This document shows, in pieces, positions 11,378 to 34,114 of a stretch of 64,000 bases of DNA. The notes beneath the pieces were generated by a model. The model did no database searches and was not told where the DNA came from. It saw nothing but the letters and a program-made list of their open reading frames with translations. The translations under genes and the position numbers were made by a program. This stretch comes from Oscillospiraceae bacterium (GTDB lineage: Bacteria > Bacillota > Clostridia > Oscillospirales > Oscillospiraceae). The DNA lies in the NCBI GenBank assembly GCA_015068325.1, contig SVKQ01000015.1, positions 124,001-188,000 on the forward strand, in the 5' to 3' direction. The first letter of the stretch is position 1, and each line of letters opens with the position of its first letter.

Positions 11378-12775
11378 TCACCGCACCGGCAGATAGCGGC
11401 CGCGGCAATCGGCTGTGACCTGTCCGTCCGTCATGGTGGTCCCGCCCCGCAGGATCGTTTTGACCACGCGGCCCCGGAAGCGCATGCCGTCATAGGGCGT
11501 CCACTTGGCCTTGGAGTACATCTTTTTCTGATCGAAGGTGTATTCCTGCTCCATGTCCACGATGGCAAAGTCCGCGTCGGCCCCTTCACGGATGGTGCCC
11601 TTGCGGGGATAGAGTCCGAAGTTTTTGGCAGCCGCGGCGGAGGTGATCTCCACCGCCCGGTGGATGTCAATCTTCCCGTCGTTGACGGCAGTCAGCACCA
11701 CCGGGGACAGTGCCTCCACGCCGCTGATGCCGGCGGGTGCATCCCAGAAACCCCTCTGCTTTTCCTCCCAGGTGTGGGGCGCGTGATCGGAGCAGACCCA
11801 GTCGATGGTACCGTCCCACACGCCCTGCCAGACCCGGTCCTGGTCCGCCTGCGTGCGGATCAGCGGATAGGTCTTCATCACGGCGCCGCACCGGGGCGCA
11901 TCGCCGTTGGTCAGGGCCAGATAGTGGCTGCAGGTCTCCGCCGTCACGTCCACCCCGTCGGCCTTGGCGCGGCGGATGTGCTCCACCCCGTCGCCCACAC
12001 CCACATGGAGGATATGCAGCGGTACGCCGATCTCCTTGGCCATGTCGATGGCGGTGTCGATGATGGAGGTCTCACAGCTGACGGGCCGCGTGCGCAGCAA
12101 CGCCTCATAGTCCTGGGCACCGCTCCGGCGCTCCAGCTCCGTCAGCGTCTTGATGATGTTGAAGTTCTCGGCGTGGATACCCACACGTTTTCCCAGTTGC
12201 GCAATACGGCGGAACATGGTGTAGATTTGTCCCTCGTCCGGCGGGGGCAGAACGCCTTTCATGTCACTGCGGTAGTTATAGATCAGGCTGTAGTCGTCGG
12301 CCTTGATGGCGTAGCCCCAGAAGAACTTGAAGGCCACCACCCCCGCCTCAGCCAGCTCCGCCAGCTGATCCAGGTTGGCGTCGCCCAACGCAAGGCCCCA
12401 CACGCAGAAGTCCGTGTGGGCCTTGGGCTCCACCACGCGCACCAGATCCCGCAGATTCTCCGCCGAATAGATGGTGGGACTGCAGTTGGGCATCTCGAAC
12501 ACGGTGGTAATGCCTGCGGCAGCGGCCGCCGCCGTGGAAGTGCCGAAATCCTCCTTCTGCCCCGTCCCGTTTCTCCCGTCCCGGGAGTGGACATGGGTTT
12601 CGATAAAACCGGGCAGCACCAGCCGACCCGATGCGTTGGTGGTCTCCCGGGCCTCGCCGGGCAGTGCCTCCTCCGTGATGCGGGCGATCCGGCCGTCCGC
12701 CACATAGATGTCTGCGCGGCGGGTCTTCCCGTCGGACACAATGGTCCCGCCGCGGATCACATGGTCCCAGGTCAT
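11378..12775 (-). CDS. Dihydroorotase-like cyclic amidohydrolase
   Basis: A 465-residue metal-dependent cyclic amidohydrolase of the dihydroorotase/allantoinase/dihydropyrimidinase family, which opens a cyclic ureide to an N-carbamoyl acid. Seen: HVHSR (His61, His63, Arg65), MPN (Asn97), a probable carboxylated Lys150 in VAFKFF, His201 (GIHAEN), His257 (HILHV) and catalytic Asp330 (CSDHAPH). The Arg in HxHxR and the Asn of MPN bind the substrate carboxylate in dihydroorotases, favouring a dihydroorotate-like substrate over allantoin. It is the last gene of the cluster, after pyrK-pyrD. The ATG at 12775 has GAGAGGAG eight bases upstream; a GTG at 12796 is less likely. Exact substrate is inferred. 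Confidence 0.85.
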   Translation of the reverse strand: MTWDHVIRGGTIVSDGKTRRADIYVADGRIARITEEALPGEARETTNASGRLVLPGFIETHVHSRDGRNGTGQKEDFGTSTAAAAAAGITTVFEMPNCSPTIYSAENLRDLVRVVEPKAHTDFCVWGLALGDANLDQLAELAEAGVVAFKFFWGYAIKADDYSLIYNYRSDMKGVLPPPDEGQIYTMFRRIAQLGKRVGIHAENFNIIKTLTELERRSGAQDYEALLRTRPVSCETSIIDTAIDMAKEIGVPLHILHVGVGDGVEHIRRAKADGVDVTAETCSHYLALTNGDAPRCGAVMKTYPLIRTQADQDRVWQGVWDGTIDWVCSDHAPHTWEEKQRGFWDAPAGISGVEALSPVVLTAVNDGKIDIHRAVEITSAAAAKNFGLYPRKGTIREGADADFAIVDMEQEYTFDQKKMYSKAKWTPYDGMRFRGRVVKTILRGGTTMTDGQVTADCRGRYLPVR

Positions 12776-12792
12776 GGGTCTCTCCTCTCTGT

Positions 12793-13710
12793 TCACCGGT
12801 GGGCCAGACCGCGGATCTCACCGACGGACTTGTATCCGTTGTCGGCCAGATAGCGGTCGATGCCCTCGATGACTTCCCTCATGCACAGGGGGTTGACAAA
12901 ATTGATCGACCCCACCTGCACCGCCGTGGCGCCAGCCAGCAGATACTCCACCGCGTCCTGCCAGCAGCTGATACCGCCGCAGGCGATGATTGGGATCTCC
13001 ACCGCTGTACTGGCCTGCCACACCAGATACATGTTCTGGGGCTTCACCGCCGGGCCGGACATACCGCCGGAGATGTTGCCCAGGGTGGGCCGCTGCTTCC
13101 GGATGTCGATGGTCATGGCCTTAAAGGTGTTGGACACCGTGACGGCGTCCATGCCGCAGGCCTCGCTGACCCGCGCGCTGTCCCGGATATCCGTCACGTT
13201 GGGCGACAGCTTGGCGATCAGCGGCAGGCGCGTGGCGCTGCGGGCAGTTTTGGCCGCCTCCTCCAGCAGCTTCACGTCTGAAGAAAAAGCCAGGCCCGTT
13301 CCCACATTGGGGCAGGAGAAATTCAGCTCCACCGCCGCGATCCGCGGATCGTTGTCCACGATCTCCAGCGCCTCACGATAGTGGTCGGTGGTGTTGCCGG
13401 AGATGCTCAGCACCACCGGCGCGCCGATGTTCTCATAACGGGACAGCTCCCGCTCCATAAAGGCCTCGATGCCGATGGAGGGGATACCCACGGCGTTGAT
13501 CATACCGCCGCACACCTCGGTGATGCGGGGAGGCGGATTGCCGGGACGTACACAGCGGTGCACGCTCTTGACCATTACCGCCCCCAGCTCGCTCATGGGA
13601 AACACGTCGGCGTTGTTTTCAAAGTAATCGTAGGTGCCAGAGGCCGGCATCACCGGATTTTGGAACACGGCGCTCCCGATCCGCACCGAGAGGTCTGTCT
13701 GGTAGCTCAT
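12793..13710 (-). CDS. pyrD: Dihydroorotate dehydrogenase, class IB catalytic subunit (canonical)
   Basis: A 305-residue FMN-containing class IB dihydroorotate dehydrogenase, which interconverts dihydroorotate and orotate together with PyrK. Seen: Lys48 in VMVKSV, Asn72 in INAVG, Asn130/Cys133/Asn135 in LNFSCPN with Cys133 as catalytic base, Asn171 in KLSPN, Asn194 in SNTFKAM, and glycine-rich FMN phosphate sites (GGISC). All orotate-binding positions of the family are kept. Its ATG overlaps the pyrK stop (ATGA). No pyrE or pyrF lies nearby, and the setting with carbamate kinase and transporters suggests it may run as an orotate reductase; that direction is inferred. Confidence 0.92.
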   Translation of the reverse strand: MSYQTDLSVRIGSAVFQNPVMPASGTYDYFENNADVFPMSELGAVMVKSVHRCVRPGNPPPRITEVCGGMINAVGIPSIGIEAFMERELSRYENIGAPVVLSISGNTTDHYREALEIVDNDPRIAAVELNFSCPNVGTGLAFSSDVKLLEEAAKTARSATRLPLIAKLSPNVTDIRDSARVSEACGMDAVTVSNTFKAMTIDIRKQRPTLGNISGGMSGPAVKPQNMYLVWQASTAVEIPIIACGGISCWQDAVEYLLAGATAVQVGSINFVNPLCMREVIEGIDRYLADNGYKSVGEIRGLAHR

Positions 13711-14477
13711 GGGATCACCCTTTCCACGTCGAATACCGGCCCGTCCTTGCACACGCGGGCATAGTGCTCCGTGCCGTCCTCCCGGCCATACTCCCTGCAG
13801 ACGCAGCCCTTGCAGGCGCCGATGCCGCAGGCCATATGCTCCTCCAGGGATACGTAGGCCGGAAAGCCATACTGCCGGTGCAGGTCACGCATGGCGCGCG
13901 CCAGCCGGTTGGAGCCGCAGGAGTAGGCCGCGTCGAAGGGCTTCTCCCGCAGATCCTCAGCAAAGGCATCCGTGATATGAACTGCCGGGTCGGTGGTGGT
14001 ACGCACCACCGCACCCAGAGATACCAACAGTTCCCGGTGGAAGAGATAGTCCGGTTCTTTGGCGGAGAGATAGGCGTACACCTCGATTCCCCGGGCCAGG
14101 CAGGTCTCCGCCAGAAAGCGCAGCGGCGCAATGCCGATGCCGCGGCCGATCACCGCCACGCGGCGGCAATCCTTCCCAATGGGAAAGCCTTTGCCCAGCG
14201 GCCCCAGCATCTGCACGCTGTCGCCGGCGACCAGCCGGGACATCAGCTCCGTCCCGGTGCCCACCACCTTATACAGCAGCGTCAGCGTACCCTTTTCCGC
14301 GTCCACTGCGTTGATGCTGATGGGCCTCATCAAAAACGGCACGCTGCCCTCCCAGGCTCTGAGCATGACGAACTGACCCGGTTGACTCTGCGCCGCCAGT
14401 TCCGGGGCGCGGAGCTCCAGGCTCAGCACGTCGGCGCAGACCCTCGTCTGGCCGGCTACAGTAAGTGTCTGATACAT
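13707..14477 (-). CDS. pyrK: Dihydroorotate dehydrogenase electron-transfer subunit
   Basis: A 256-residue FAD/[2Fe-2S] protein passing electrons between NAD(H) and PyrD. Seen: a ferredoxin-reductase-like FAD domain with the MRPISI motif (about residue 50), a nucleotide-binding stretch GRGIGIAPLRF, and a C-terminal cluster motif CGIGACKGC plus a distal Cys in VCKDGPVF. It is coupled to pyrD by a 4-base overlap and follows pyrB by 46 bases. A second, diverged PyrK lies at 26910-27683. Confidence 0.92.
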   Translation of the reverse strand: MYQTLTVAGQTRVCADVLSLELRAPELAAQSQPGQFVMLRAWEGSVPFLMRPISINAVDAEKGTLTLLYKVVGTGTELMSRLVAGDSVQMLGPLGKGFPIGKDCRRVAVIGRGIGIAPLRFLAETCLARGIEVYAYLSAKEPDYLFHRELLVSLGAVVRTTTDPAVHITDAFAEDLREKPFDAAYSCGSNRLARAMRDLHRQYGFPAYVSLEEHMACGIGACKGCVCREYGREDGTEHYARVCKDGPVFDVERVIP

Positions 14478-14523
14478 CCTTTCCTCCTCCGCTGGCAGGC
14501 CTCACGGCCGCCGGCGCTGTTCT

Positions 14524-15450
14524 TTACACCCGGCCGGTCACCAATCCCAGCAGGGCCATACGCAGATACATGCCGTTGTGGGCCTGGCGGAAATAGGCCG
14601 CGCCGGGATAGCTGTCCACCTCGGTGGCGATCTCATCCACACGGGGCAGAGGATGCAGAATGGTAATGTCCTTCTTGGCGCACTTGAGCAACTCATTGTC
14701 CACGATGTAGGAGCCCTTCACCCGCTCGTAGCTCTCCTGGTCGGGGAAGCGCTCCCGCTGTACGCGGGTCACGTACACAAAATCGGACTGGGCCAGTGCC
14801 TCGCGCACGTCGCCGGTCTCCACGATGTCGGCACCCCGGGCGCGCAGATCCGCCGTAATCTCCTCGGGCATCTTCAGCTCATCGGGCGAGGCGAAGATCA
14901 TCCGGTTGCCCAGCTGCTGCATGAAGTAGCCCAGGCTGTGCACGGTGCGGCCATACTTCAGGTCGCCCAAGAAGGTGATGGTCTGACCGCCGATGTGACC
15001 CTTCTCCTTGCGCATGGTGTAGATGTCCAGCAGCGCCTGGGTGGGATGCTGGCCGGCGCCGTCGCCGCCGTTGATGACGGGGTGCACGGCGATGTCAGCG
15101 GCGCGGACCGCAGCCCCTTTCTCCGGGTGGCGCATCACGATGACGTCCACGTAGCCGTCCACGGTGCTGATGGTGTCCTCCAGCGTCTCGCCCTTGGCCT
15201 GAGAGGAGGCCTTGGCGTCAGCCATGGAGATGCAGCGTGCGCCGGTGCGGTTGATGGCCGCCTCAAAGGACAGGCGGGTGCGGGTGGAAGGCTCAAAGAA
15301 CAGGCTGGCCACGACACAGCCATCCAGATCGTGGATGACCTCGCCGCGCTTCACGCGCTTTTCGTACTCCGCCGCCGTGTTCATGATGTGGTTGAGCTGC
15401 TGGTTGGTGAACTGATATCCGTTCAGGATATCCAGGCCTTTGAAGTCCAT
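14524..15450 (-). CDS. pyrB: Aspartate carbamoyltransferase catalytic subunit
   Basis: A 308-residue aspartate/ornithine carbamoyltransferase-family protein. The carbamoyl-phosphate loop is STRTR (Ser55-Arg59), with Lys86 (SSQAKGET), His135 (HPTQALLD), and the aspartate-side residues Arg229 (TRVQRERF) and HPLPR (266-270). These favour aspartate, rather than ornithine, as the amino substrate. No regulatory pyrI gene is adjacent. Between a hydrolase gene and pyrK-pyrD-amidohydrolase, and with carbamate kinase in the same cluster, it could work in biosynthesis or split carbamoyl-aspartate in reverse; sequence cannot decide. Start ATG has AGGAGGA upstream. Confidence 0.92.
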   Translation of the reverse strand: MDFKGLDILNGYQFTNQQLNHIMNTAAEYEKRVKRGEVIHDLDGCVVASLFFEPSTRTRLSFEAAINRTGARCISMADAKASSQAKGETLEDTISTVDGYVDVIVMRHPEKGAAVRAADIAVHPVINGGDGAGQHPTQALLDIYTMRKEKGHIGGQTITFLGDLKYGRTVHSLGYFMQQLGNRMIFASPDELKMPEEITADLRARGADIVETGDVREALAQSDFVYVTRVQRERFPDQESYERVKGSYIVDNELLKCAKKDITILHPLPRVDEIATEVDSYPGAAYFRQAHNGMYLRMALLGLVTGRV

Positions 15451-15486
15451 TTCTCTATTCCTCCTGTTGTCGTTCTCACCCGGGGC

Positions 15487-16386: not shown

Positions 16387-16405
16387 CTTTCGTATCCTTT
16401 CTGCC

Positions 16406-17134: not shown

Positions 17135-17151
17135 ACCGATCCCTCCTCCGC

Positions 17152-18189: not shown

Positions 18190-18208
18190 ACCCGTATCCT
18201 CCTATTCC

Positions 18209-20188: not shown

Positions 20189-20208
20189 ATATACCTCCGT
20201 TGTCTGCC

Positions 20209-20292
20209 GACTGCCGAGGCAGTCCGTCTTTTCGCGTGAGATATGAATCGTCGTGTGTCTGCGGGACCGCCGGCGGCGATGCGCCGGCGGTC
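20209..20292 (-). promoter_or_regulatory. Intercistronic stem-loops between binding-protein and permease genes
   Basis: 20265-20275 and 20282-20292 form an 11-bp GC stem (GACCGCCGGCG) around a 6-base loop. A second palindrome (GACTGCC/GGCAGTC) lies at about 20209-20224. No T-run follows. Such hairpins often protect the upstream binding-protein mRNA so that it is made in excess over the permease. Confidence 0.5.
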
Positions 20293-20374
20293 TCCACGTT
20301 GGTTTGTGAATACGTAGGGCCTCGTATCCTCGGTCGGTTGTTTGCTTGTGCGGTGCGCTGCGCCGCGGCGAGGC

Positions 20375-24130: not shown

Positions 24131-25080
24131 GGTGTGCCCCCTTCCGCCTCTCGCTGGGCGTAAAAGGCCTCGGCGGCGGGATGCAGGGCGATGGGCGTCT
24201 GCCGCGCCCGCTGTAGGTCGATCTCTTTGGCCACGGCCTGGATCGCCCCCAGCTGCTCCTGGTGGTCAAATATGGACTGCAGCACGGCCTCTACCTGACC
24301 GTCCGGCACCTGGTTGTTGACGATCAGCGTCACGCCCAGCCGCACGGTGGGCAGCAGATCGTTCGACGCGGTGTCCGTCGGGCCGTAGTAGTCGGCTGCA
24401 ATGGTGTCGCAGGTAAAATATGGGTATGTGTCCGCCAACTCCCGGGCCCGGTCAATGGGCAGCAGCCGGACGTCCTTGACCAGTGCCAGCTCCGTGATGG
24501 AGGAGTTCGGCATGGGCATGATGACGATCATCGCGTCGCAATGTCCGTCCCGCATGGCGGTCACACCCTCAGAATAACTCATTTTCACGCCGTGGAGATC
24601 CTGCTCCGAGATCCCATAGGCCGCCAGTATATCCAGCGCTGCCATATAGAGGGATGATCCGGCCGGGCTGAGAACGACTCTCCTCCCCCGCAGATCCTCC
24701 ACGCTGGTGATGTCCGAATCGTCGAACACCACGATCTGCACCGCACAGGTATAGAGCTGTGCCACCGCACTGATGTCGTAGGTCTCTGCGTATGGCCAGG
24801 CGCCGTTTTTGGCCGAATAGGCCGCATTGCTGTTGATCAGGCCGAAGCCCATGTCCAGTTGCCCCACCAGCGTCCCGTTCTCGATGCCGCCGCTGGTGAC
24901 CTGGGCCACCGCATCATATTCCGTGATGTAGTGGCAGATCCCCGCGGAGAGGGGGTACCACTGACTGGTCGACGTACCCGATGCGATCAGGATCGTACGC
25001 TCGCCGCCGGACACCCGGGAGGCGCACGCCGTCAGCACGACAGCCAGCAGCACACAGCACAGCCGTATCGTCCTCTTCAC
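24127..25080 (-). CDS. TAXI-family TRAP substrate-binding lipoprotein, system 2
   Basis: A 317-residue TAXI-type solute-binding lipoprotein. Seen: a basic VKRTIR start, a hydrophobic core and the lipobox LTAC, then the TAXI-like core IASGTSTSQWYPLSAG. It partners the fused permease directly downstream. The start is read as GTG at 25080 because AGAGG lies seven bases upstream and the signal peptide then has normal length; the ATG further upstream adds an unlikely N-terminus. It diverges clearly from the receptor of system 1, which supports a different ligand. Confidence 0.85.
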   Translation of the reverse strand: MKRTIRLCCVLLAVVLTACASRVSGGERTILIASGTSTSQWYPLSAGICHYITEYDAVAQVTSGGIENGTLVGQLDMGFGLINSNAAYSAKNGAWPYAETYDISAVAQLYTCAVQIVVFDDSDITSVEDLRGRRVVLSPAGSSLYMAALDILAAYGISEQDLHGVKMSYSEGVTAMRDGHCDAMIVIMPMPNSSITELALVKDVRLLPIDRARELADTYPYFTCDTIAADYYGPTDTASNDLLPTVRLGVTLIVNNQVPDGQVEAVLQSIFDHQEQLGAIQAVAKEIDLQRARQTPIALHPAAEAFYAQREAEGGTP

Positions 25081-25106
25081 CAGTCCGCCTCTTTTCGATC
25101 GTTTCT

Positions 25107-25496
25107 CTACTGCAACTCTCGCAGCTGCGCCAGCCATTGGGGCGCTTCCTCCAGCGCCTGCCGGTTCATGTCGGCAAATTGGGCCAGTTCCTCCGGTCCC
25201 AGACCGTCGTAGTGGATGCCGCCGAAGCAGATCACCTGCCGGCCGGACAGGGCGCTGAGCTTTTCCGCCAGCTCCCGCAGCATAAACTCGTCCTTGTGGC
25301 CTGCCACGTTCAGCACGCCGGAGGTGGCGCTGTCTGTTCCGTCATCGCGCAGGCTGGGCCGGTGCACTGCCAGCACGGCGCTGCCCAGATGTGCCTCGCC
25401 GCCTGTGACACAGACCATCAGATCCTCACCCAGCATAGCCAGCTCATAGCACACGGCGTATTCACCGCGGCGCAGCTCCCGTCTCCACGTGATCAT
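25107..25496 (-). CDS. LpdD-like UbiD-associated small protein
   Basis: A 129-residue protein that resembles, from memory, LpdD, the small protein encoded with gallate decarboxylase LpdC (UbiD family) and the UbiX homologue LpdB. Shared features: GEDLMVCVTGGEAHLG, a middle AGHKDE segment and a later GIHYDGL motif. LpdD-type proteins are thought to help maturation or prenyl-FMN delivery to UbiD partners. Its start overlaps the ubiX stop (ATGA), and ubiD lies in the same cluster, which fits that role. The family call is by eye. Confidence 0.6.
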   Translation of the reverse strand: MITWRRELRRGEYAVCYELAMLGEDLMVCVTGGEAHLGSAVLAVHRPSLRDDGTDSATSGVLNVAGHKDEFMLRELAEKLSALSGRQVICFGGIHYDGLGPEELAQFADMNRQALEEAPQWLAQLRELQ

Positions 25497-26059
25497 GGCC
25501 GGCCACCTTCCCAGCGGTGCACCAGTTCCGTGTCCTGTATGCCCAGCAGGTCCAGTACGCGCCCTACCGTTTGGTTCACGATCTCATCCACCGTCTGCGG
25601 CCGGCTGTAGAAAGCCGGCACCGGAGGAACGATGATCCCACCCATCAGCGTCACCAGACGCATATTCTCAATGTGGCTCAGATTCAGCGGCGTCTCCCGC
25701 GTCAGCAGGATCAGTCTGCGCCGCTCCTTCAGCATCACGTCCGCCGAACGCACCATCAGGCTCTCGTTGTAGCTGTGGGCGATGCCGGAGAGCGTCTTCA
25801 TGCTGCACGGCGCGATGACCATGGCGTCCACCCGGTGGGAACCGCTGGAGATCCGGGCCGCCAGGTCGGCGTTGTCATACACGTGGTCCGCCAGTGCACA
25901 CACCTGCTCGACGGTGTAATCCGTCTCATAGCCGATGGTCTTCTTTCCCCACTCGCTTAGCAGCAGGTTCGTCTCCACACCGGCCTTTTTCAGCTCCTCC
26001 AGCAATCGGATCCCATAGATGCTGCCGGTGGCGCCGCTGATGGCAATCGTCACAGTCAC
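25493..26059 (-). CDS. ubiX: Flavin prenyltransferase UbiX
   Basis: A 188-residue prenyltransferase that makes prenyl-FMN, the cofactor of UbiD decarboxylases. Seen: the FMN loop ISGATGSIYG near the N-terminus, APCSMKTLSGIA, and RETPLNLSHIENM near residue 140, all signatures of the family. The start is placed at GTG 26059 because GGGAGG lies eight bases upstream; the GTG at 26068 overlaps that site. It lies between a PyrD-like gene and the LpdD-like gene and would supply the cofactor for the UbiD protein at 27708-29105. Confidence 0.93.
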   Translation of the reverse strand: MTVTIAISGATGSIYGIRLLEELKKAGVETNLLLSEWGKKTIGYETDYTVEQVCALADHVYDNADLAARISSGSHRVDAMVIAPCSMKTLSGIAHSYNESLMVRSADVMLKERRRLILLTRETPLNLSHIENMRLVTLMGGIIVPPVPAFYSRPQTVDEIVNQTVGRVLDLLGIQDTELVHRWEGGRP

Positions 26060-26080
26060 GGCTCTCACCTCCCGCGTCTT

Positions 26081-26917
26081 CTAAAGTGATTCGATCAACT
26101 GCCGGATGGTTTCCGGCTCCGTAAAATTGGCTGTCCCCACCGCCACCGCTTTTGCGCCGGCGGCCAGATATTCCCGCACGTCGTCGGCCGTGACAACGCC
26201 GCCACAGCCCACCACATCGATATCCACACGTTGGCTCACCTGCTGCACCAGGAACAGGGATATGGGCTTGATGGCAGGACCCGTCAGGCCGCCGGTCGGA
26301 CTGCCCAGACGGGACTTTCCCGCACTGTCCAGCGCCATGGCCCAGTAGCTGTTGGCACACACCACGCACCGGCCGCCGGCAGCCCGGACAACGGCGGCAG
26401 TCTCCACCACGTCGCCGGCCATAGGCAGCAGCTTGGCCCACACGGGCCTGTCGCCTGCGGCCACGGCGGCGGCCACCTGGCGGCGGCAGCGCTCCAGATA
26501 GGCCTCGCGGCCCATGTCGTAATACTCCTCCGGCTCGCAGTAGAGATTCACCTCAATAGCCTTGACCCGCTCCAGCGCACACAGCGCTCGGGTCATCAGG
26601 CCGATCTCCTCCTCCGTGCCCGTAATACTGGCGATGACAGGCACACGCAGCCCTGCCAAACCCTTGTAAAAAGTGCTCACGAACTTTTCGTAGCCGGGAT
26701 TCTGCAGCCCCACCCGGTTGAGAGCGCCGGCACGGGTCTCCCACAGCCGGGGGCGCGGTGCGCCGCCGCGGGGCCTGCAGGTCATAGTGCGGGTGGTGAG
26801 TCCGCCCAGCAGATTCAGGTCGATATAGTCGGCGTAGGAGGGGCCGAAGCCCATGGTACCCGCCGCGTTGAGCAGCGGATTTTGCAGCTCTACGCCGCCG
26901 ACGACGCATTTATCCAT
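26081..26917 (-). CDS. Dihydroorotate-dehydrogenase-like flavoprotein with altered active site
   Basis: A 278-residue PyrD (class IB)-like TIM-barrel flavoprotein. Kept: Asn67 (LNRVGLQNPG), Asn124 and Cys127 in VNLYCEP (Cys127 aligns with the catalytic base), Asn189 (ANSYWAM), and FMN glycines (GCGGV). Changed relative to the canonical PyrD at 12793-13710: the active-site Lys is Arg43 (TTRTMT), the second Asn of the SCPN motif is Pro129, and Asn of KLSPN is Met166. These positions contact orotate in known enzymes, so a different ring substrate is likely. Start ATG 26917 (GGAGGAGG upstream) overlaps the end of its own PyrK-like partner. Confidence 0.85.
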   Translation of the reverse strand: MDKCVVGGVELQNPLLNAAGTMGFGPSYADYIDLNLLGGLTTRTMTCRPRGGAPRPRLWETRAGALNRVGLQNPGYEKFVSTFYKGLAGLRVPVIASITGTEEEIGLMTRALCALERVKAIEVNLYCEPEEYYDMGREAYLERCRRQVAAAVAAGDRPVWAKLLPMAGDVVETAAVVRAAGGRCVVCANSYWAMALDSAGKSRLGSPTGGLTGPAIKPISLFLVQQVSQRVDIDVVGCGGVVTADDVREYLAAGAKAVAVGTANFTEPETIRQLIESL

Positions 26918-27683
26918 CGAATGCGACCTCCTCCAGAGGAAATACAGGCCCATCCACGCAGACCTTTTTGAACAGCCGTCTGCGGCCGCTGTTCATGGGG
27001 AAGCCGCACCCAGAGCAGGCGCCGATGCCGCAGGCCATCCGCTCCTCCAGGGAGACGTAGCCGCCGCCGCAGCCGCTGCGGCTCGCCCAGTCCTGCACGG
27101 CGGCCAGCAGGGCCAGCGGCCCGCAGGCGTACACCGTCGTTTCCCGCGCAAGGCGCTCCGGCAGGATGTCCAGCACCGTCTGTCCGAGGCTCTCCGCAGC
27201 GGTGTGCAGGGCGGCGCACTCCACCAGCTCATCCCGACAGAAGAGATGTGCCTCATCCCGTGCGCCGTAATACACATCGACGGGGATGCCTGCCTCCCGG
27301 AGCTGCCTGGTCAGCAGCGCCAGCGGCGCGATGCCCAAGCCGCCCGCCACCAGCACCGCCCGCGGCCCCTCCACGGGGAAGGGCGTGCCGATAGGACCCA
27401 TCAGGTCCAGCTGCGCACCCTCCGGCACGTGGGAAAGCCAGTCCGTCCCGCGGCCCACCGCCTGATAGAGCAGCGTGATGGTGCCAGCGACGGCATCCGC
27501 GTCGCAGATGCTGATGGGCCGCCGCAGCAGCGGGTCGAAGCCCTCTCCCACCCGGATGAACACAAACTGCCCGGGCCGGCTGCGCCCGGCGATCACCGGT
27601 GCGCGCAGCCGCAGCTCATAATACGACGGCTGCAGCGTCCGGTGACGCTCCACCACCGCGTATTCTCTGGTCCTGTCTGACAT
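26910..27683 (-). CDS. PyrK-like FAD/[2Fe-2S] electron-transfer subunit, second copy
   Basis: A 257-residue PyrK homologue. Seen: FAD-binding RRPISI near residue 55, a nucleotide site GGLGIAPLAL, and the C-terminal cluster motif CGIGACSGC with a distal Cys in VCVDGPVF. It overlaps the altered PyrD-like gene by 8 bases, so the two are built as a pair. It would pass electrons from NADH, or from another donor such as the ferredoxin-fused molybdenum hydroxylase encoded upstream, to the PyrD-like flavin. Confidence 0.88.
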   Translation of the reverse strand: MSDRTREYAVVERHRTLQPSYYELRLRAPVIAGRSRPGQFVFIRVGEGFDPLLRRPISICDADAVAGTITLLYQAVGRGTDWLSHVPEGAQLDLMGPIGTPFPVEGPRAVLVAGGLGIAPLALLTRQLREAGIPVDVYYGARDEAHLFCRDELVECAALHTAAESLGQTVLDILPERLARETTVYACGPLALLAAVQDWASRSGCGGGYVSLEERMACGIGACSGCGFPMNSGRRRLFKKVCVDGPVFPLEEVAFDG

Positions 27684-27707
27684 AGTCGCTCCTCTTTGCC
27701 GATTGCC

Positions 27708-29105
27708 TTACTTGCTCTCCCGCTCCTTCATGAAGTTGCGGATCATCTCCTCGATATAGGGCTCATCCTGACCCGGCGTGTACACCGGCTTAAACGCCTC
27801 CCGGTCCTCCAGGGGCGCGGTGGCGTCGATGCCCATTTTGGACGAGGCACGGGCATAGGGCGCCGACGGATCCAGGGTGGGGCTGTACATGGTAGGCAGG
27901 ATCAGCACGTCGTGCTCCGGCTGCATCCGGGTGTTGATGGCCCACTCCACCTGCTTCATGTCGTGCACGTCGATATCGTCATCCACCACCACGCACAGCT
28001 TGATACCGATATTGGCGGCCAGCAGCGCCGCCATGATGTTGCGGGGCTCATAGGGGTGGCGCTTTTTGATGGAGATCACCAGGTGGTGGCGGCTGGTGCC
28101 GCCCGGTGTCATGCAGATATCCTTGATATCCGGGCAGATCTTATAGGCCTCACGATAGGCGATGGCCGTGGCCGCCAGATCCATGAGCCAGTGGTTCTCC
28201 GTCATGGGCATACCGGTCAGGGCATTCTGGAAGATGGCATCACGGCGCATGGTGATGGCGGTGATCTCCACCACCGGAGCCTTGCGGATCTCGCTGTAGG
28301 TACCGGGATATTCGCCGAAGGGTCCGTCGTCCTCGCGGACGCCGGGAATGGTGCGGCCCTCGATGACGATCTCCGCCGTGGCGGGGACCTCCACATCAAT
28401 GGTCTTGCACTTGACCAGCTTCACCGCCTCGCCCCGCAGGCCGCCGGCCATGCCCAGCTCGTCGGTGCCCAGCGCCGGACGGCACTGGGAGGCGATGGCG
28501 ATGATGGGATCACCGCCGATGACCGTGGCGATCTCCGTGCCGTTGCCGTTGTCCTCGTTGCGCTGCACGATGGTGCCCAGGTTGCGCCCCTTGGGGGCAA
28601 AACAGGTCATGTGGTTCTTGTCCAGCAGCAGCATCCGGTGCATGGAGGCGTTCCGCTGCCCGGTGACGGGGTCCTTGGCGATCTGCACGCCCGCGGTGAT
28701 ATAGGGGCCCAGATCCTTTTCAAAGTTGGTCAGGATGGGCAGCTTGTACAGGTCCACATCGTCCCCGGTCAGTACGACCTCGTGGACGGGAGCCTCATCC
28801 TCACCCACCAGCTCTGGCTGGATGAACACGTTCTCGTGGGCCACATACTCCTTGATGACGTTTTTCCGGTCCTCACCCAGACCCAGCGCCAAATGGACGC
28901 GCTCCCGGCTGCCATACAGGCCGGCCAGAACGGGCATGTCATACCCCTCCACATTGGTGAACAGCAGCGCCGGGCCGTTCAGGTCAGAGGTCTTGCGGGA
29001 AAACGCCGCGATCTCATGCTTGGTGCTGACCTTGCGGTCGATGACCATCAGGTCATTCCTCTTCTTCAGTTCCTCCAGGAACTCGCGCAGATCATTGTAT
29101 GCCAT
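27708..29105 (-). CDS. UbiD-family (de)carboxylase
   Basis: A 465-residue prenyl-FMN-dependent decarboxylase. UbiD proteins decarboxylate aromatic, heteroaromatic or unsaturated acids, and some work as carboxylases. Seen: the conserved Glu/Arg region REDDGPFGEYPGTY around residues 275-290, the upstream GTEIATVIGGDP segment, and the C-terminal helical region of the family. Maturation genes ubiX and an lpdD-like gene are in the same cluster. The neighbours (molybdenum hydroxylase, PyrD-like reductase, amidohydrolases) point to an N-heterocyclic acid rather than ubiquinone synthesis; that is an inference. The start follows CGAAAGGA. Confidence 0.92.
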   Translation of the reverse strand: MAYNDLREFLEELKKRNDLMVIDRKVSTKHEIAAFSRKTSDLNGPALLFTNVEGYDMPVLAGLYGSRERVHLALGLGEDRKNVIKEYVAHENVFIQPELVGEDEAPVHEVVLTGDDVDLYKLPILTNFEKDLGPYITAGVQIAKDPVTGQRNASMHRMLLLDKNHMTCFAPKGRNLGTIVQRNEDNGNGTEIATVIGGDPIIAIASQCRPALGTDELGMAGGLRGEAVKLVKCKTIDVEVPATAEIVIEGRTIPGVREDDGPFGEYPGTYSEIRKAPVVEITAITMRRDAIFQNALTGMPMTENHWLMDLAATAIAYREAYKICPDIKDICMTPGGTSRHHLVISIKKRHPYEPRNIMAALLAANIGIKLCVVVDDDIDVHDMKQVEWAINTRMQPEHDVLILPTMYSPTLDPSAPYARASSKMGIDATAPLEDREAFKPVYTPGQDEPYIEEMIRNFMKERESK

Positions 29106-29149
29106 TCCTTTCGTCCTCCTGATTATGTAAACTATTTTTGTTGATTCTT

Positions 29150-31573
29150 TTATTCCTCACCATCATCCAGATGCAGGCACTTTTTCGGACACACGCTTTG
29201 GCACAGTCCGCACTCTACGCAGCGGCTGTCGTTGACACGCCAGAACCGCTCCTTTCTATCCACGGTGATGGCATCCTGCGGACACTTTCTGGCACACAGG
29301 CCGCAGAAGATACAGCTCTCGTCCGTCCGCAGCCGCAGGATACGGGCGCTCTCCGGCACAGGGCGATAGGGAAGATCATGCAGATCTCTCCCCAGCGCGT
29401 TGGAGATGGCATTGATGACCGCCGGCGCACTGGGCACTACCGCGCATTCCGAAATGCTCTTGGCGCCATAGGGTCCGGTGGGCTCCCCCTTCTCGATGAA
29501 GTCGGTCTGGAGTCGCGGCATCTCCAACGCCGTGGGTGTATGATAGGTGTGCAGACTGCTACGCTTCAAGCGCCCCTGTTCGTCGTACTCCAGCGCTTCC
29601 TGCAGGGCATAGCCGATGCCCATTTGTATGCCGCCCTCCAGCTGGCCCTCGATGCCCATGCGGTTCATCACGCGGCCCACGTCGTGCACGGCGATATAGT
29701 CTGTGACCTCCGCCCGGCCACTCTCTGTGTCCACCCGCACCCGTGCCATGTGGACGCCGTAGGAGCCGGGCACATGCTCCGAGGCGTGGGTCGCCACGCC
29801 GAAGATCTCGTGGTGCGACACGCTCTGAGCGTGGTTCATCACCTGATCCAAGGGCACGCGCTTTTCCAGTCGGAGGCTCTCGGCAAATCCGCCCCGCAGG
29901 CGGATGTCGGCCTCCTCCGTGCCCAGCAGCTGTGCCGCCTCGCGGCGGAGCTGACGGGCCGCGTCCTCCGCGGCCTCCTTGACCGCGTAGCAACTGACGT
30001 ATACGCCCCGGCTGGAGAAATCGCCCAGATTCCAGCCGCACACGTCTGTGTCGGAGGCGATGCAGTCGATCCGGTCCAGCGGGATACCCAGCTCCTCCGA
30101 GATCACCTGCATCTGGGCGATCAGCGCGCCGTTGCCCATATCGTGGGTGCCGGTGTGCAGCACACAGGAGCCGTCGTCGTTCATTTTGATGACCATGCAG
30201 TTCTGGTCGATCTGGGATCCGAAGGCGCCGCTGCCGTGTACGCCCAACGCCCACCCCACGCCGATGCGGTACTTGCCGTTCTCATCAGACAGGGGCGACC
30301 AGTTCTTCTGCAGTTCCAGCGCCCGCTCCAGACAATCCTTGGGCCGTGGGTTGCCGATGGGATGCCCCACGCACAGGTCGCTGTCCTCCGGGTCCACCAG
30401 ATTCTGCAGCTGCAGCTGTGTATAGTCCAGGCCCATCTCCCGGGCGATCCGCTGGAGCTGACACTCCATGGCGAAATACACCTGGGGCGAGCCGTAGCCC
30501 CGCATGGCGCCGGCTACCGGCGTGTTGGTATAGACCGGCGTGCCCACAAAGCGCATATTGGGCGTCTTATAGGCCTTGAACACCTTGGCGCTCATAGCGC
30601 CGATCACATTGGCCGCGCTGGAGGCATAGGCCCCGGTATTGGTGACCACGTGAATATCCTGGGCCACCAGGGTGCCGTCGTTCTTCACACCTGTCCGGAT
30701 GCGAATCACCGCGGCATGACGGCAGCGGGTGGATACCATGCACTCCCGTCGGTTCAGTGTCAGCTTCACCGGGCGGCGACACAGCATGGTCAACGCCACC
30801 GGGATCAGTTCCATGCTGGACTCCATCTTGCCGCCGAAGGCCCCGCCCATGGTAGGGCTGACCACGCGGATCTTGTTCAGCGGCATGCCCCAGATGCGGG
30901 ACAGCACGATCCGCTCTCCAAAGGTGTTCTGAAACGGTGCGATCAGCGTCAACTTGCCCCGGACATCCATACTGGCGATGGCTGTGTGGGGTTCGATGGC
31001 ACAGTGGTGGACAGCCGGCGTGGTATAGGTATCCTCAAAGATACGGTCCGCCTCCAGAAACCCCTTCTCCACATCGCCGGCATTCTTCTCCAGCCGCAGC
31101 GCCACATTGCTGCTGCCGTGGATGGGACAGGTGCCTTCCTCCAGGGCCTGCAGCGGGTCCACGAGGACGGGCAGTTCCTCATACTCTACTCGGATCAGCT
31201 CCACTGCCCGGCGGGCGATCTCCGGCGTATCTGCCGCTACCGCCGCCACCCGGTCGCCCACAAAGCGCACCGTGTCGTCAAAGACGCGCTCTGTCTCGAT
31301 GGGAGCGGGACTCTGCAGGAAAAATCGCGTGGTACTGTTGAACCGCACCTGCGGCGTATTTTTGTAACAGGCCACCGCCCGCACACCCGGCAGTTGCTCC
31401 GCCGCCGCCGTGTCGATGCTTTTGATCCTGGCGTGGGCCACAGGACTCCACAGCACCTTGGCGTACAGCATCCCCGGCAGGGATATGTCGTCCACGTACT
31501 GCAGCTGGCCTGTCACCTTGGCGGCGGCGTCATGGACCGGGACGCTCCGGCCGATCATCGTCTGATCCGCCAT
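29150..31573 (-). CDS. Xanthine-dehydrogenase-type molybdenum subunit fused to a 2x[4Fe-4S] ferredoxin
   Basis: An 807-residue protein. Residues 1-745 are the molybdopterin-binding subunit of the xanthine dehydrogenase/aldehyde oxidase family, which hydroxylates a carbon next to a ring nitrogen using water. Seen: GGAFGGK (243-249), AGAMRGYGSPQ, and catalytic Glu709 in GAKSISE. Residues 752-807 form a bacterial ferredoxin domain with two CxxCxxCxxxCP motifs (Cys754/757/760/764 and 785/788/791/795). No FAD subunit gene is present in the cluster, so electrons may leave through this ferredoxin. The ATG at 31573 follows GGGAGG and lies two bases after the small-subunit stop. Confidence 0.9.
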   Translation of the reverse strand: MADQTMIGRSVPVHDAAAKVTGQLQYVDDISLPGMLYAKVLWSPVAHARIKSIDTAAAEQLPGVRAVACYKNTPQVRFNSTTRFFLQSPAPIETERVFDDTVRFVGDRVAAVAADTPEIARRAVELIRVEYEELPVLVDPLQALEEGTCPIHGSSNVALRLEKNAGDVEKGFLEADRIFEDTYTTPAVHHCAIEPHTAIASMDVRGKLTLIAPFQNTFGERIVLSRIWGMPLNKIRVVSPTMGGAFGGKMESSMELIPVALTMLCRRPVKLTLNRRECMVSTRCRHAAVIRIRTGVKNDGTLVAQDIHVVTNTGAYASSAANVIGAMSAKVFKAYKTPNMRFVGTPVYTNTPVAGAMRGYGSPQVYFAMECQLQRIAREMGLDYTQLQLQNLVDPEDSDLCVGHPIGNPRPKDCLERALELQKNWSPLSDENGKYRIGVGWALGVHGSGAFGSQIDQNCMVIKMNDDGSCVLHTGTHDMGNGALIAQMQVISEELGIPLDRIDCIASDTDVCGWNLGDFSSRGVYVSCYAVKEAAEDAARQLRREAAQLLGTEEADIRLRGGFAESLRLEKRVPLDQVMNHAQSVSHHEIFGVATHASEHVPGSYGVHMARVRVDTESGRAEVTDYIAVHDVGRVMNRMGIEGQLEGGIQMGIGYALQEALEYDEQGRLKRSSLHTYHTPTALEMPRLQTDFIEKGEPTGPYGAKSISECAVVPSAPAVINAISNALGRDLHDLPYRPVPESARILRLRTDESCIFCGLCARKCPQDAITVDRKERFWRVNDSRCVECGLCQSVCPKKCLHLDDGEE

Positions 31574-31575
31574 GG

Positions 31576-32046
31576 TCACGCCTCCCTTATGCGCCGGGCC
31601 GCCTCGCCGATGGCCTCCACGATCTTGTAGTAGCCGGTACAGCGGCACAGATTGTTGCGGATGGCCTGCCGGATCTCCTCCTCTGTGGGGTCGGGATTCC
31701 GATCCAGCAGTGCCTTGGCACTCATGATCATGCCCGGCGTACAGAAGCCGCACTGCACTGCGCCGCAATCGATAAAGGCCTGCTGGATGGGATGCAGTGC
31801 GCCGCCGTTCCACAAGCCCTCAATGGTCTCGATGGTCTTGCCGGCCATATCCCTCGCCATCAGCCTGCAGGCGTTGCGCGCCTCGCCGTCCACGATGACC
31901 TTGCAGGCACCGCAGTCACCCGAATCGCAGCCCTCTTTCGTCCCCGTCAGGTGCAGGACCTCCCGCAGCACATACAGGAGGGTCCACTTCGGCTCCACCG
32001 CCACGGCGTGGATCACGCCGTTGATGTTCAGTTCGATCGTATCCAT
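31576..32046 (-). CDS. Molybdenum hydroxylase [2Fe-2S] small subunit
   Basis: A 156-residue iron-sulfur subunit of the xanthine dehydrogenase/CoxS/NdhS type. Seen: the plant-ferredoxin-like cluster motif CDSGDCGACKV with a following Cys, and the second cluster motif CGFCTPGM plus LCRCTGYYK. It passes electrons from the molybdenum centre of the downstream-encoded subunit. Length is normal. It follows the carbamate kinase gene by about 40 bases. Confidence 0.95.
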   Translation of the reverse strand: MDTIELNINGVIHAVAVEPKWTLLYVLREVLHLTGTKEGCDSGDCGACKVIVDGEARNACRLMARDMAGKTIETIEGLWNGGALHPIQQAFIDCGAVQCGFCTPGMIMSAKALLDRNPDPTEEEIRQAIRNNLCRCTGYYKIVEAIGEAARRIREA

Positions 32047-32085
32047 CTGTGCACCCTTCTCCGCTGCGCGTATGCTGTCAGCCGT

Positions 32086-33027: not shown

Positions 33028-33056
33028 ACTACATCTCCTTAAAAATATTGTAAATT

Positions 33057-33091
33057 CAGCTTCTCTATAAGTAAATACAGCTTCTTGATAA
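33057..33091 (-). promoter_or_regulatory. Direct repeats in the leader of the catabolic operon
   Basis: On the plus strand CAGCTTCTCTATAA (33057-33070) and CAGCTTCTTGATAA (33078-33091) match at 12 of 14 positions and start 21 bases apart, two turns of the helix. They lie between the palindrome at 33146-33160 and the carbamate kinase start. They could be a second regulator site; the binder is unknown. Confidence 0.35.
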
Positions 33092-33145
33092 AATGTGCGG
33101 CCTCGCGGCGTTTGATTTTAGGAAAAAGTACAATGCGCTGCAGAT

Positions 33146-33160
33146 TGTATACTGTATACA
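33146..33160. promoter_or_regulatory. Perfect inverted repeat, likely operator of the GntR regulator
   Basis: TGTATACTGTATACA is a perfect palindrome with 7-base arms around one T. It lies in the 160-base gap between the GntR gene and carbamate kinase. Short TNGTATACNA-like palindromes are typical of FadR-type GntR proteins. On the minus strand its TATACA/TATACAAT could overlap a -10 element, which would suit repression. No strong -35 is visible. Confidence 0.6.
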
Positions 33161-33187
33161 TTCGGTCGGTATAAAAAGTGCACCCCG

Positions 33188-33919
33188 TTATTTCCTCTGC
33201 TGCGCCAACATTTTGCGGTATTCCTGATATCCCGCCAAGGCCGCGGCCTTCACATTGGTGGTGTGGATCTGCAGTGCGGAGCGGAGCGCCTCCTCGTCCC
33301 GCTGCAGCAGCGCATCGCAGATGGCGATATGCTCCTCTACAGCGGCGTGGCGGCGGCCCTCGCCGTATACGGCGAACTCCCGCAGCCGGGTGTGGCTGGC
33401 GTTGACAAAGGTAGTGCTCGGGTTATAAAGTTCAATCTGTTCGATCAGCTTAATCAGCAGCGGCATACGGCAACTCTTTGTCAGGACATCGTTGAACTGA
33501 TCCAACCTTTGGAAATAGATGGTCTCATCACCGCTCTCCAGCGCCTGTAGACAGGCGTCGTTGCACGATGCCATCTGGCGGATCTCCTCATCGGTGATGT
33601 TCCTGACGGTAGCCTCCACGCTGAGCATCTGGAGCGTGCTGCGGATGGTATACACCTCCTCCATCTCCTCCTCGCTCAGCGGGGCCCGGGCGATGGCTCC
33701 CTTTTTCGGCTCGTATATGACCAGCTCATCCCGCTCCAGCATACGGATCGCCTCACGCACAGGCGTGCGGCTCACATGAAAGATCTTGGCGTATGTGGTC
33801 TCTACGATGCGCTCATTGGGCTTGATGGCTCCGCTGACGATGGCCTCCTTCAGTTGGCGATATACGTTCTCCCGCTGCGGATTTCCAACGGCAATGGGGG
33901 TAAACATTTCGGCAAACAT
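33188..33919 (-). CDS. GntR-family (FCD/FadR subfamily) transcriptional regulator
   Basis: A 243-residue regulator. Seen: an N-terminal winged helix with VSRTPVREAIRMLERDELV (about residues 49-67), then an all-helical FCD ligand domain with conserved acidic and histidine positions (HAAVEEHIAI). Regulators of this type usually sense a pathway metabolite and repress a neighbouring catabolic operon. It is encoded just upstream of the cluster on the same strand, with its own strong promoter at 33945-33973. The start could be 33919 or the ATG at 33907; AAGG directly abuts the first ATG, so the second is a real alternative. Confidence 0.92.
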   Translation of the reverse strand: MFAEMFTPIAVGNPQRENVYRQLKEAIVSGAIKPNERIVETTYAKIFHVSRTPVREAIRMLERDELVIYEPKKGAIARAPLSEEEMEEVYTIRSTLQMLSVEATVRNITDEEIRQMASCNDACLQALESGDETIYFQRLDQFNDVLTKSCRMPLLIKLIEQIELYNPSTTFVNASHTRLREFAVYGEGRRHAAVEEHIAICDALLQRDEEALRSALQIHTTNVKAAALAGYQEYRKMLAQQRK

Positions 33920-34098: not shown

Positions 34099-34114
34099 CC
34101 CTCGCCATATGTGT

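What the first reader, a model, noticed from the sequence alone, without database searches (positions are those of the whole stretch)
11378..33919. A ~22-kb catabolic cluster combining carbamoyl-phosphate energy capture with a molybdenum hydroxylase and UbiD decarboxylase
About 20 genes on one strand with tight or overlapping spacing encode two TRAP importers, a Mo hydroxylase, UbiD/UbiX/LpdD-like, two PyrD/PyrK pairs, an OCD-family enzyme, two maleate-isomerase-like proteins, two hydrolases of ring-opening families, aspartate carbamoyltransferase, carbamate kinase and a GntR regulator. Known: anaerobes such as Clostridium oroticum ferment orotate through dihydroorotate and carbamoyl-aspartate. 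Inference: this cluster feeds a carboxylated N-heterocycle into such a route, harvesting ATP through carbamate kinase. The Mo-hydroxylase and UbiD steps, and the second PyrD, are not part of any pathway I know. Purine-degradation clusters with ygfK, ssnA and ygeX do not match.
Basis: partly seen in the sequence, partly recalled or inferred. Interest (0 to 1): 0.85.

Follow-up and report, generated by a model that had tools for sequence, protein, structure and literature searches.

The report
Anaerobic orotate-type catabolism gene cluster
A 21-gene bacterial cluster appears to break down orotate-like ring acids and to recover ATP by running an aspartate-using enzyme of pyrimidine synthesis backwards, although its exact food molecule is still unknown.

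Summary
In detail: 21 minus-strand genes (11378-33919), gaps -19 to 186 bases, between lexA and pgeF/secA. The lower arm is coherent: PyrD/PyrK, a dihydroorotase-type amidohydrolase, aspartate carbamoyltransferase (ATCase), carbamate kinase, i.e. orotate -> dihydroorotate -> carbamoyl-aspartate -> aspartate + carbamoyl phosphate -> ATP. For the catabolic direction: no carbamoyl-phosphate synthetase was found in this 95%-complete genome; the ATCase is 77% identical to one in a distant genome sharing the core genes, versus 40-47% to 18 family relatives over the same stretch; two Bacillus-type relatives join the same UbiD type to a carbamoylase (one also to the amidohydrolase and aspartase). Against: ATCase, PyrD and the dihydroorotase-type enzyme are the only copies found, and arginine-derived carbamoyl phosphate could drive them biosynthetically.

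The upper arm (Mo hydroxylase, UbiD/UbiX/LpdD, a second divergent PyrD) recurs with the lower arm in part of the relatives; its substrate is unknown. The second PyrD has the DHOD-B fold but lost residues kept in 19 of 19 (one in 18 of 19) aligned PyrDs. Two cluster proteins tested found no counterpart in sampled relatives, which suggests horizontal acquisition. Verdict: a new variant of carbamate-kinase fermentation with an unsolved N-heteroarene entry route.

The parts
33188..33919 (-). GntR/FCD regulator
   Evidence: PF00392 + PF07729
32086..33027 (-). carbamate kinase
   Evidence: TIGR00746 414 bits, cut-off 358
31576..32046 (-). 2Fe-2S subunit of the Mo hydroxylase
   Evidence: PF01799, PF00111; NCBIfam models below cut-off
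29150..31579 (-). Mo hydroxylase large subunit with a C-terminal 2[4Fe-4S] domain; no FAD subunit among the 21 genes
   Evidence: PF02738, PF20256, PF01315, Fer4; nearest solved structure 4-hydroxybenzoyl-CoA reductase 1rm6
27708..29105 (-). UbiD-family decarboxylase
   Evidence: TIGR00148 394 bits, cut-off 245; nearest solved structure 6h6v
26910..27683 (-). PyrK_B, electron-transfer subunit
   Evidence: PRK00054 models, below cut-off
26081..26917 (-). PyrD_B, divergent DHOD-B-like subunit
25493..26068 (-). UbiX flavin prenyltransferase
   Evidence: TIGR00421 246 bits, cut-off 109
25107..25496 (-). LpdD-like protein (name recalled)
   Evidence: PF21758 92 bits, Pfam name PAC_bac
24127..25080 (-). 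TAXI-type TRAP binding protein B
   Evidence: TIGR02122 183 bits
22247..24130 (-). TRAP fused permease B
   Evidence: TIGR02123 398 bits
21549..22265 (-). AMDase/maleate-isomerase-like protein 1 (both cysteines present, by eye)
   Evidence: PF17645 119 bits; NCBIfam models below cut-off
20375..21442 (-). TAXI-type TRAP binding protein A
   Evidence: TIGR02122 219 bits
18209..20188 (-). TRAP fused permease A
   Evidence: TIGR02123 642 bits
17152..18189 (-). ornithine-cyclodeaminase/mu-crystallin family reductase
   Evidence: PF02423 217 bits
16406..17134 (-). AMDase-like protein 2 (second cysteine absent, by eye)
   Evidence: PF17645 69 bits
15487..16386 (-). protein without family; NodB-like by motif only
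   Evidence: no Pfam match, no NCBIfam match
14524..15450 (-). aspartate carbamoyltransferase
   Evidence: TIGR00670 350 bits, cut-off 237
13707..14477 (-). PyrK_A, electron-transfer subunit
   Evidence: PRK00054 models, below cut-off
12793..13710 (-). PyrD_A, class 1B dihydroorotate dehydrogenase
   Evidence: TIGR01037 295 bits, cut-off 270; active-site columns kept
11378..12775 (-). cyclic amidohydrolase, dihydroorotase-type motifs
   Evidence: TIGR03178 allantoinase 363 (cut-off 358) and TIGR00857 pyrC_multi 292 (cut-off 279); HVHSRD, MPN, SDHAPH
33945..33973 (-). promoter-like site before GntR
   Evidence: TTGACG-17-TATAAT, 11 of 12; consensus match only

Best explanation
The cluster is a probably horizontally acquired catabolic operon of an anaerobe for pyrimidine-type ring acids, with orotate as the central intermediate. 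TAXI-TRAP importers bring in the acid. PyrD_A/PyrK_A reduces orotate to dihydroorotate with NADH. The amidohydrolase opens it to N-carbamoyl-aspartate. The ATCase runs backwards (phosphorolysis) to aspartate and carbamoyl phosphate, pulled by carbamate kinase, which makes ATP. Mo hydroxylase, UbiD/UbiX/LpdD and PyrD_B/PyrK_B form an upper arm that converts a further N-heteroaromatic carboxylate to this intermediate by hydroxylation (or dehydroxylation), decarboxylation and ring reduction. Shown by sequence: the gene set, family assignments, dihydroorotase motifs, absence of a CarB match, the separate history of the ATCase, and recurrence of parts of the set with carbamoylase and aspartase. Inferred: the direction of all reactions, the identity of the substrate, and every step of the upper arm.
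For: CarB (PF02787) was not found in the own genome (controls 14 of 14). It is present in 17 of 20 listed family relatives and absent in G071, G184, G252 and in G1051. The window ATCase groups with that of G1051 (76.9% over 156 positions, support 0.998), apart from all 18 family ATCases (39.7-46.8% over the same stretch; 45-51% in the search rows). Carbamate kinase is in the same cluster, and in G1051 it sits next to ATCase; such vicinity is given as a mark of catabolic transcarbamylases in PMC6022934 (passages seen). The amidohydrolase has H-[VI]-H-x-R, MPN and DHAPH as in dihydroorotases, shared with the Mesobacillus and Ammoniphilus proteins, passes the pyrC_multi cut-off, and in a tree of 10 branches next to the dihydroorotases (0.900), not with the allantoinase- or dihydropyrimidinase-like ones. 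Mesobacillus: UbiD - DctPQM - OCD - AMDase-like - SDR - PucR - carbamoylase - amidohydrolase (47%) - aspartase. Ammoniphilus: FAD, 2Fe-2S and Mo subunits - PucR - carbamoylase - PyrK - PyrD - EamA - UbiX - TAXI - TRAP - UbiD. Both have CarB and ATCase-family matches elsewhere, so there the cluster is not needed for synthesis. PyrD_A keeps the checked active-site columns except L71I, which Ammoniphilus shares.
Against: The genome is 95% complete, so CarB may lie in the missing part. The only ATCase, PyrD copies and dihydroorotase-type enzyme found are in this cluster (the last by similarity to the window enzyme, so a remote dihydroorotase could be missed), and pyrE and pyrF exist elsewhere, so a biosynthetic use is possible. 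Arginine deiminase and ornithine carbamoyltransferase are present and could supply carbamoyl phosphate. NCBIfam's best model for the amidohydrolase is allantoinase, 5 bits over its cut-off, likewise for the two relatives, and its nearest solved structure is an L-hydantoinase. G1051 has a canonical dihydroorotase instead (33%), its genes lie on separate short contigs, and it is a MAG of unknown completeness, so its lack of CarB is weak evidence. Of the five UbiD relatives at 58-72%, L045 shows no other cluster gene and L047 no PyrDK. No activity data exist.
Confidence: 0.55

Rival explanations
1. Biosynthetic rival: ATCase, the dihydroorotase-like enzyme and PyrDK_A make pyrimidines in the forward direction, with carbamoyl phosphate from arginine (deiminase plus OTC) or from carbamate kinase; the other genes are an unrelated catabolic operon joined to them.
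For: They are the only copies found in the genome; pyrE and pyrF are present; arginine deiminase and OTC are present. Carbamoyl phosphate from arginine feeds pyrimidines in CPS-less Thermococcus kodakarensis (PMC13260591, abstract and passages), and label from arginine enters orotic acid and pyrimidines in Eggerthella lenta (PMC10234575, passages).
Against: Carbamate kinase sits in the same cluster and next to ATCase in G1051. In two Bacillus-type relatives the same UbiD type is clustered with a hydrolytic carbamoylase, which fits only breakdown, although both have CarB. The ATCase does not group with the 18 family ATCases examined.
Confidence: 0.25
2. Two independent pathways under one regulator: a pyridine- or pyrazine-type acid is degraded by Mo hydroxylase, UbiD, PyrD_B, the NodB-like, AMDase-like and OCD proteins, while orotate is fermented separately by the lower arm. 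(This overlaps with the best explanation in its lower arm, so the odds do not exclude each other.)
For: Two TAXI-TRAP systems and two PyrDK pairs. In Chloroflexi L047 and L048 the UbiD relative sits with Mo hydroxylase without PyrDK or ATCase on the stretches held. A UbiD-like 6-hydroxyquinolinate decarboxylase is described in PMC6644310 (passage; that a Mo hydroxylase precedes it is recalled).
Against: In Ammoniphilus the carbamoylase and PyrKD lie between Mo hydroxylase and UbiD. In Mesobacillus UbiD is with carbamoylase, amidohydrolase and aspartase. In L044 UbiD is near a PyrD_B-like gene, UbiX and a pyrF start.
Confidence: 0.3
3. A purine-degradation variant (xanthinase or uric-acid reductive type) in which UbiD would act on an imidazole carboxylate.
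For: Mo hydroxylase, DHOD-family reductase, amidohydrolase, carbamoyltransferase and carbamate kinase also occur in the uric-acid pathway (PMC12507026, parts 1 and 2 of 7 read). The host is a likely purine degrader.
Against: The carbamoyltransferase scores as an ATCase (TIGR00670 350 bits, cut-off 237) and only 35 bits with the ygeW model (cut-off 500); no YgeX, YgfK or SsnA model is among the families listed for the 21 genes (for two of them only the best 25 are shown). A separate ygeW/ygeY cluster exists in the genome.
Confidence: 0.06

Closest known systems
Orotate fermentation of Clostridium (Zymobacterium) oroticum (recalled)
   Same: orotate -> dihydroorotate -> carbamoyl-aspartate by PyrDK and a dihydroorotase-type enzyme
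   Different: C. oroticum is recalled to hydrolyse carbamoyl-aspartate (ureidosuccinase); here ATCase plus carbamate kinase take that place; I recall no counterpart there of Mo hydroxylase, UbiD and PyrD_B
Catabolic transcarbamylase plus carbamate kinase pathways (arginine deiminase, agmatine deiminase, oxamate/allantoin, YgeW/urate)
   Same: a ureido compound is phosphorolysed and carbamoyl phosphate gives ATP; kinase and transferase genes lie near each other (PMC6022934, passages)
   Different: the transferase here is an aspartate carbamoyltransferase; the passages of PMC6022934 that I saw name citrulline, carbamylputrescine, agmatine and allantoate as substrates, not carbamoyl-aspartate
Reductive uric-acid pathway (XdhD, YgfK/UacX, SsnA, HyuA, YgeW, YgeY, YgeX; PMC12507026, parts 1-2 of 7 read)
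   Same: Mo enzyme, a DHOD-family dearomatising reductase (UacX), amidohydrolase, carbamoyltransferase, carbamate kinase
   Different: no SsnA, YgeX or YgfK among the families listed; has UbiD/UbiX/LpdD, ATCase and two PyrDK pairs
UbiD/UbiX/LpdD (hydroxy)aryl acid decarboxylases; 6h6v (HmfF, furandicarboxylate decarboxylase; name and substrate recalled)
   Same: full UbiD with UbiX and LpdD-like partner; nearest solved structure
   Different: clustered with pyrimidine-ring enzymes; substrate unknown
Class 1B dihydroorotate dehydrogenase (PyrDK), for PyrD_B
   Same: fold and PyrK partner
   Different: K43R, S126Y, P128E, N129P, T190S, P202S, N206S at positions kept in 19 of 19 (K43: 18 of 19) other PyrDs of the alignment

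Membership tests
catabolic transcarbamylase + carbamate kinase fermentation | transcarbamylase and carbamate kinase encoded together | tested here: met
   same 21-gene cluster; adjacent in G1051 L065
catabolic transcarbamylase + carbamate kinase fermentation | carbamoyl phosphate not supplied by a CPS in the organism | tested here: inconclusive
   no PF02787 match in a 95%-complete genome; arginine route possible
catabolic transcarbamylase + carbamate kinase fermentation | net phosphorolysis and ATP formation | not testable with these tools
   needs assay
C. oroticum-type orotate catabolism | PyrDK of orotate-binding type | tested here: met
   PyrD_A above the TIGR01037 cut-off, checked active-site columns kept, L71I apart; activity not tested
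C. oroticum-type orotate catabolism | dihydroorotase | tested here: inconclusive
   dihydroorotase motifs (residue roles recalled) and pyrC_multi over cut-off, but best NCBIfam model is allantoinase, also over cut-off
C. oroticum-type orotate catabolism | ureidosuccinase/carbamoylase | tested here: not met
   none in the family lists of the 21 genes; present in the two Bacillus-type relatives
de novo pyrimidine biosynthesis | carbamoyl-phosphate synthetase in the genome | tested here: not met
   with 14 of 14 controls positive; genome 95% complete
reductive uric-acid (ygeX) cluster | YgeX, SsnA and YgfK or UacX | tested here: not met
   no YgeX, SsnA or YgfK model among the listed families (best 25 only for the amidohydrolase and the Mo subunit); UacX was not modelled, though PyrD_A and PyrD_B share its Pfam family
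UbiD decarboxylases | UbiD domains with UbiX partner | tested here: met
   PF20695, PF01977, PF20696; TIGR00421
UbiD decarboxylases | decarboxylation of a defined acid | not testable with these tools
   substrate unknown
class 1B dihydroorotate dehydrogenase (PyrD_B) | fold and PyrK partner | tested here: met
class 1B dihydroorotate dehydrogenase (PyrD_B) | NxSCPN loop and active-site lysine | tested here: not met
   NLYCEP and R; a related broken copy in L044 reads NLYISW
allantoinase (amidohydrolase) | TIGR03178 above cut-off | tested here: met
   363 versus 357.85 bits
allantoinase (amidohydrolase) | active-site motifs and tree position with allantoinases | tested here: not met
   dihydroorotase-type motifs; tree of 10 proteins places it next to dihydroorotases, 0.900

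The most novel reading that the evidence does not exclude
A hitherto undescribed anaerobic pathway in which prFMN-dependent UbiD decarboxylation, a ferredoxin-linked Mo hydroxylase and a new DHOD-like reductase (PyrD_B) convert an N-heteroaromatic carboxylate to the orotate level, and a true catabolic aspartate carbamoyltransferase with carbamate kinase recovers ATP from carbamoyl-aspartate.
Probability: 0.35. Interest if true: 0.78.

Novelty: new variant of a known kind. Interest (0 to 1): 0.62.

Why it matters
If true, the textbook first step of pyrimidine synthesis (ATCase) works in nature as an energy-yielding catabolic enzyme. Orotate, which occurs in milk and urine (recalled), would become a fermentable substrate. 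UbiD and Mo-hydroxylase chemistry would be tied to pyrimidine-ring breakdown, and a DHOD-like subfamily without the SCPN loop would await a substrate. The relatives in Mesobacillus and Ammoniphilus make the idea testable.

Tried and rejected
Purine/urate cluster: rejected for this locus on the marker genes, though one exists elsewhere in the genome. Allantoinase as the function of 11378-12775: set aside on motifs and tree in spite of the NCBIfam score. Conservation in close relatives: the protein at 15487-16386 has no match at E 0.001 in the other 294 genomes of the order sample or the other 397 of the phylum sample (the samples overlap), and none in 72,556 plasmid records. The other cluster proteins were not searched in relatives, except ATCase and, in four genomes each, the amidohydrolase and Mo subunit. 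Plasmids hold only UbiDs under 60%, at most 37.6% in the 20 records listed of 420. The model of the 15487-16386 protein was too poor to use. HmfF paper not held. Paper searches: UbiD + dihydroorotate dehydrogenase + carbamate kinase + gene cluster gave 0 papers; UbiD + orotate gave 15, none on this by title and abstract start; carbamoyl aspartate + carbamate kinase + catabolic + carbamoyltransferase gave 2. The capped lists (20 of 996; 20 of 109; 12 of 149; 10 of 178) and the 5 papers showed no catabolic ATCase and no such cluster in titles and abstract starts. (6 of 290 listed) and the C. acidurici passages did not give a gene for the imidazole-carboxylate decarboxylase, so UbiD in the xanthinase route is not excluded by literature.

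The scan that found relatives needs one of six exact 8-residue peptides, so it is a lower bound; of its 11 loci, 5 are 58-72% identical to the window UbiD (L044-L047, L049), L048 is 43% and five are 32-35% (these five were not examined further). L045 shows UbiD with an NMT1-like binding protein and an ABC gene but no other cluster gene on 12.4 kb; L047 shows Mo hydroxylase, a second UbiD and an NMT1-like protein; L048 shows two Mo large subunits and a 30% amidohydrolase; none of the three shows PyrDK. These do not support the link to pyrimidine genes.

Full report
Anatomy. The minus strand from 33919 to 11378 carries 21 genes with gaps of -19 to 186 bases; 17 of the 20 gaps are 46 bases or less and the others are 106, 160 and 186. 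The order of transcription is GntR, carbamate kinase, Mo-hydroxylase small and large subunits, UbiD, PyrK_B, PyrD_B, UbiX, LpdD-like, TAXI_B, TRAP_B, AMDase-like 1, TAXI_A, TRAP_A, OCD, AMDase-like 2, a protein without family, ATCase, PyrK_A, PyrD_A, amidohydrolase. Upstream lie lexA and a ribosomal protein/rpoA block (by eye); downstream, on the other strand, pgeF and secA. A promoter-like site of 11 of 12 precedes GntR. The large Mo subunit ends in a 2[4Fe-4S] domain, and no FAD subunit is among the 21 genes. A ferredoxin-linked electron path is my inference, as suggested for C. difficile XdhD in PMC12507026 (parts 1 and 2 of 7 read).

Genome context. The window lies in contig C14 of a 1.96-Mb genome, 95.13% complete. 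Only two DHO_dh genes were found in it, both in the cluster. The three OTCace-family genes are this ATCase, an ornithine carbamoyltransferase next to arginine deiminase, and a YgeW. pyrE and pyrF lie on C21. The only other relative of the amidohydrolase at E 0.001 is a D-hydantoinase-type gene near ygeW (31%). CarB was not found (14 of 14 controls positive). In 20 listed relatives of the same family CarB is present in 17 and missing in G071, G184 and G252; it is also missing in G1051 and present in G1052 and G1053. G071 and G252 also lack an ATCase-level match, so loss of de novo pyrimidine synthesis seems to occur in this family.

Origin of the ATCase. The window ATCase is 75-77% identical to two overlapping pieces of an ATCase in G1051, the genome behind L044. 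Over the same 156 positions it is 39.7-46.8% identical to the ATCases of 18 family relatives. The tree joins window and G1051 with 0.998, apart from the 18. So it does not descend with the ATCases of those relatives; that it moved with the cluster is the simplest reading.

Relatives of the cluster. A scan of 84,980 species genomes with the UbiD found 11 loci, 5 of them at 58-72% identity. G1051 (a Bacillota MAG): TRAP - UbiD (72%) - Lrp-type regulator - a broken PyrD_B-like gene - UbiX (59%) - LpdD (43%) - ThiS-like - start of pyrF on one contig; PyrD - dihydroorotase - carbamate kinase - ATCase on another; Mo small (68%) and large (61%) subunits on a third. The G1051 Mo large subunit shows no ferredoxin domain. 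Ammoniphilus sp. YIM 78166: FAD, 2Fe-2S and Mo subunits - PucR - carbamoylase - PyrK - PyrD - EamA - UbiX (reverse) - TAXI - TRAP - UbiD (58%) - DctPQM, with an amidohydrolase at 48% elsewhere. Mesobacillus harenae: UbiX (reverse) - TAXI - TRAP - UbiD (58%) - DctPQM - OCD - AMDase-like - SDR - PucR - carbamoylase - amidohydrolase (47%) - aspartase (TIGR00839 737 bits, cut-off 681); no Mo hydroxylase or PyrDK was seen in its stretches. The Chloroflexi loci show UbiD with an NMT1-like/ABC transporter (L045) or with Mo hydroxylase (L047, L048), without PyrDK on the stretches held. The carbamoylase-amidohydrolase-aspartase row in Mesobacillus is the clearest sign that the product is aspartate, made by breakdown of carbamoyl-aspartate. 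This row is in the relative, not in the window.

Mechanism. Lower arm, my best reading: orotate -> dihydroorotate -> carbamoyl-aspartate -> aspartate + carbamoyl phosphate -> ATP + carbamate. The ATCase equilibrium opposes this direction (recalled), but coupling to carbamate kinase is how the known catabolic transcarbamylases work (PMC6022934, passages). Upper arm: UbiD and the Mo hydroxylase probably act on an imported N-heteroaromatic carboxylate whose product joins the orotate level, perhaps with PyrD_B. I could not name the acid; UbiD as an orotate decarboxylase or a uracil carboxylase also remains open. The roles of OCD, the two AMDase-like proteins and the family-less protein are unassigned.

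Main doubt. The lower-arm enzymes are also the only pyrimidine-synthesis-type copies found here, and arginine-derived carbamoyl phosphate could drive them forward, as reported for Thermococcus kodakarensis (PMC13260591, abstract and passages) and as labelling suggests in Eggerthella lenta (PMC10234575, passages). Both uses could coexist.

Novelty. I place it as a new variant of the carbamate-kinase fermentations. My paper searches showed no catabolic ATCase and no such cluster in their listings, several of which were capped; most subscription papers are not in that library.

Noticed in passing
L012 (G000:C6:12000-31000): Same genome: YgeW carbamoyltransferase, YgeY-type hydrolase, a PLP lyase (YgeX-like by eye), a D-hydantoinase-type gene and, by eye, a BMP-type ABC transporter: a urate/purine-type cluster separate from the window.
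   Followed up: partly
L094 (G000:C14:284000-299000): Selenium-dependent xanthine dehydrogenase and a further Mo hydroxylase with FAD and 2Fe-2S subunits, next to a glycine/sarcosine/betaine reductase component C gene.
   Followed up: partly
L013 (G000:C14:64000-76000): Arginine deiminase beside ornithine carbamoyltransferase, a possible second source of carbamoyl phosphate.
   Followed up: partly
window 29150-31579: The Mo subunit has a fused C-terminal 2[4Fe-4S] ferredoxin domain; its 61% relative in G1051 (L093) shows none.
   Followed up: partly
G071, G252 and G184 (same family): G071 and G252 lack both CarB and an ATCase-level match, G184 lacks CarB only: loss of pyrimidine synthesis seems recurrent in this family.
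   Followed up: no
L044 3424-4074 and L065 3250-4112: The PyrD_B-like gene of this MAG holds in-frame stops and its ATCase is split over two frames; real decay or assembly error cannot be told.
   Followed up: no
L082 1931-13931: Upstream of the Ammoniphilus Mo hydroxylase: fumarate-reductase-like flavoprotein and M20 peptidase, an amidohydrolase (SsnA-like by eye), and by eye two DctPQM transporters and XdhC-like proteins; perhaps another N-heterocycle route.
   Followed up: no
L047 4350-12256: Two different UbiD genes flank a Mo hydroxylase and an NMT1-like binding protein in a Chloroflexi MAG.
   Followed up: no
window 34067-34103: Strong terminator-like stem (16 pairs) between lexA and the cluster.
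   Followed up: no
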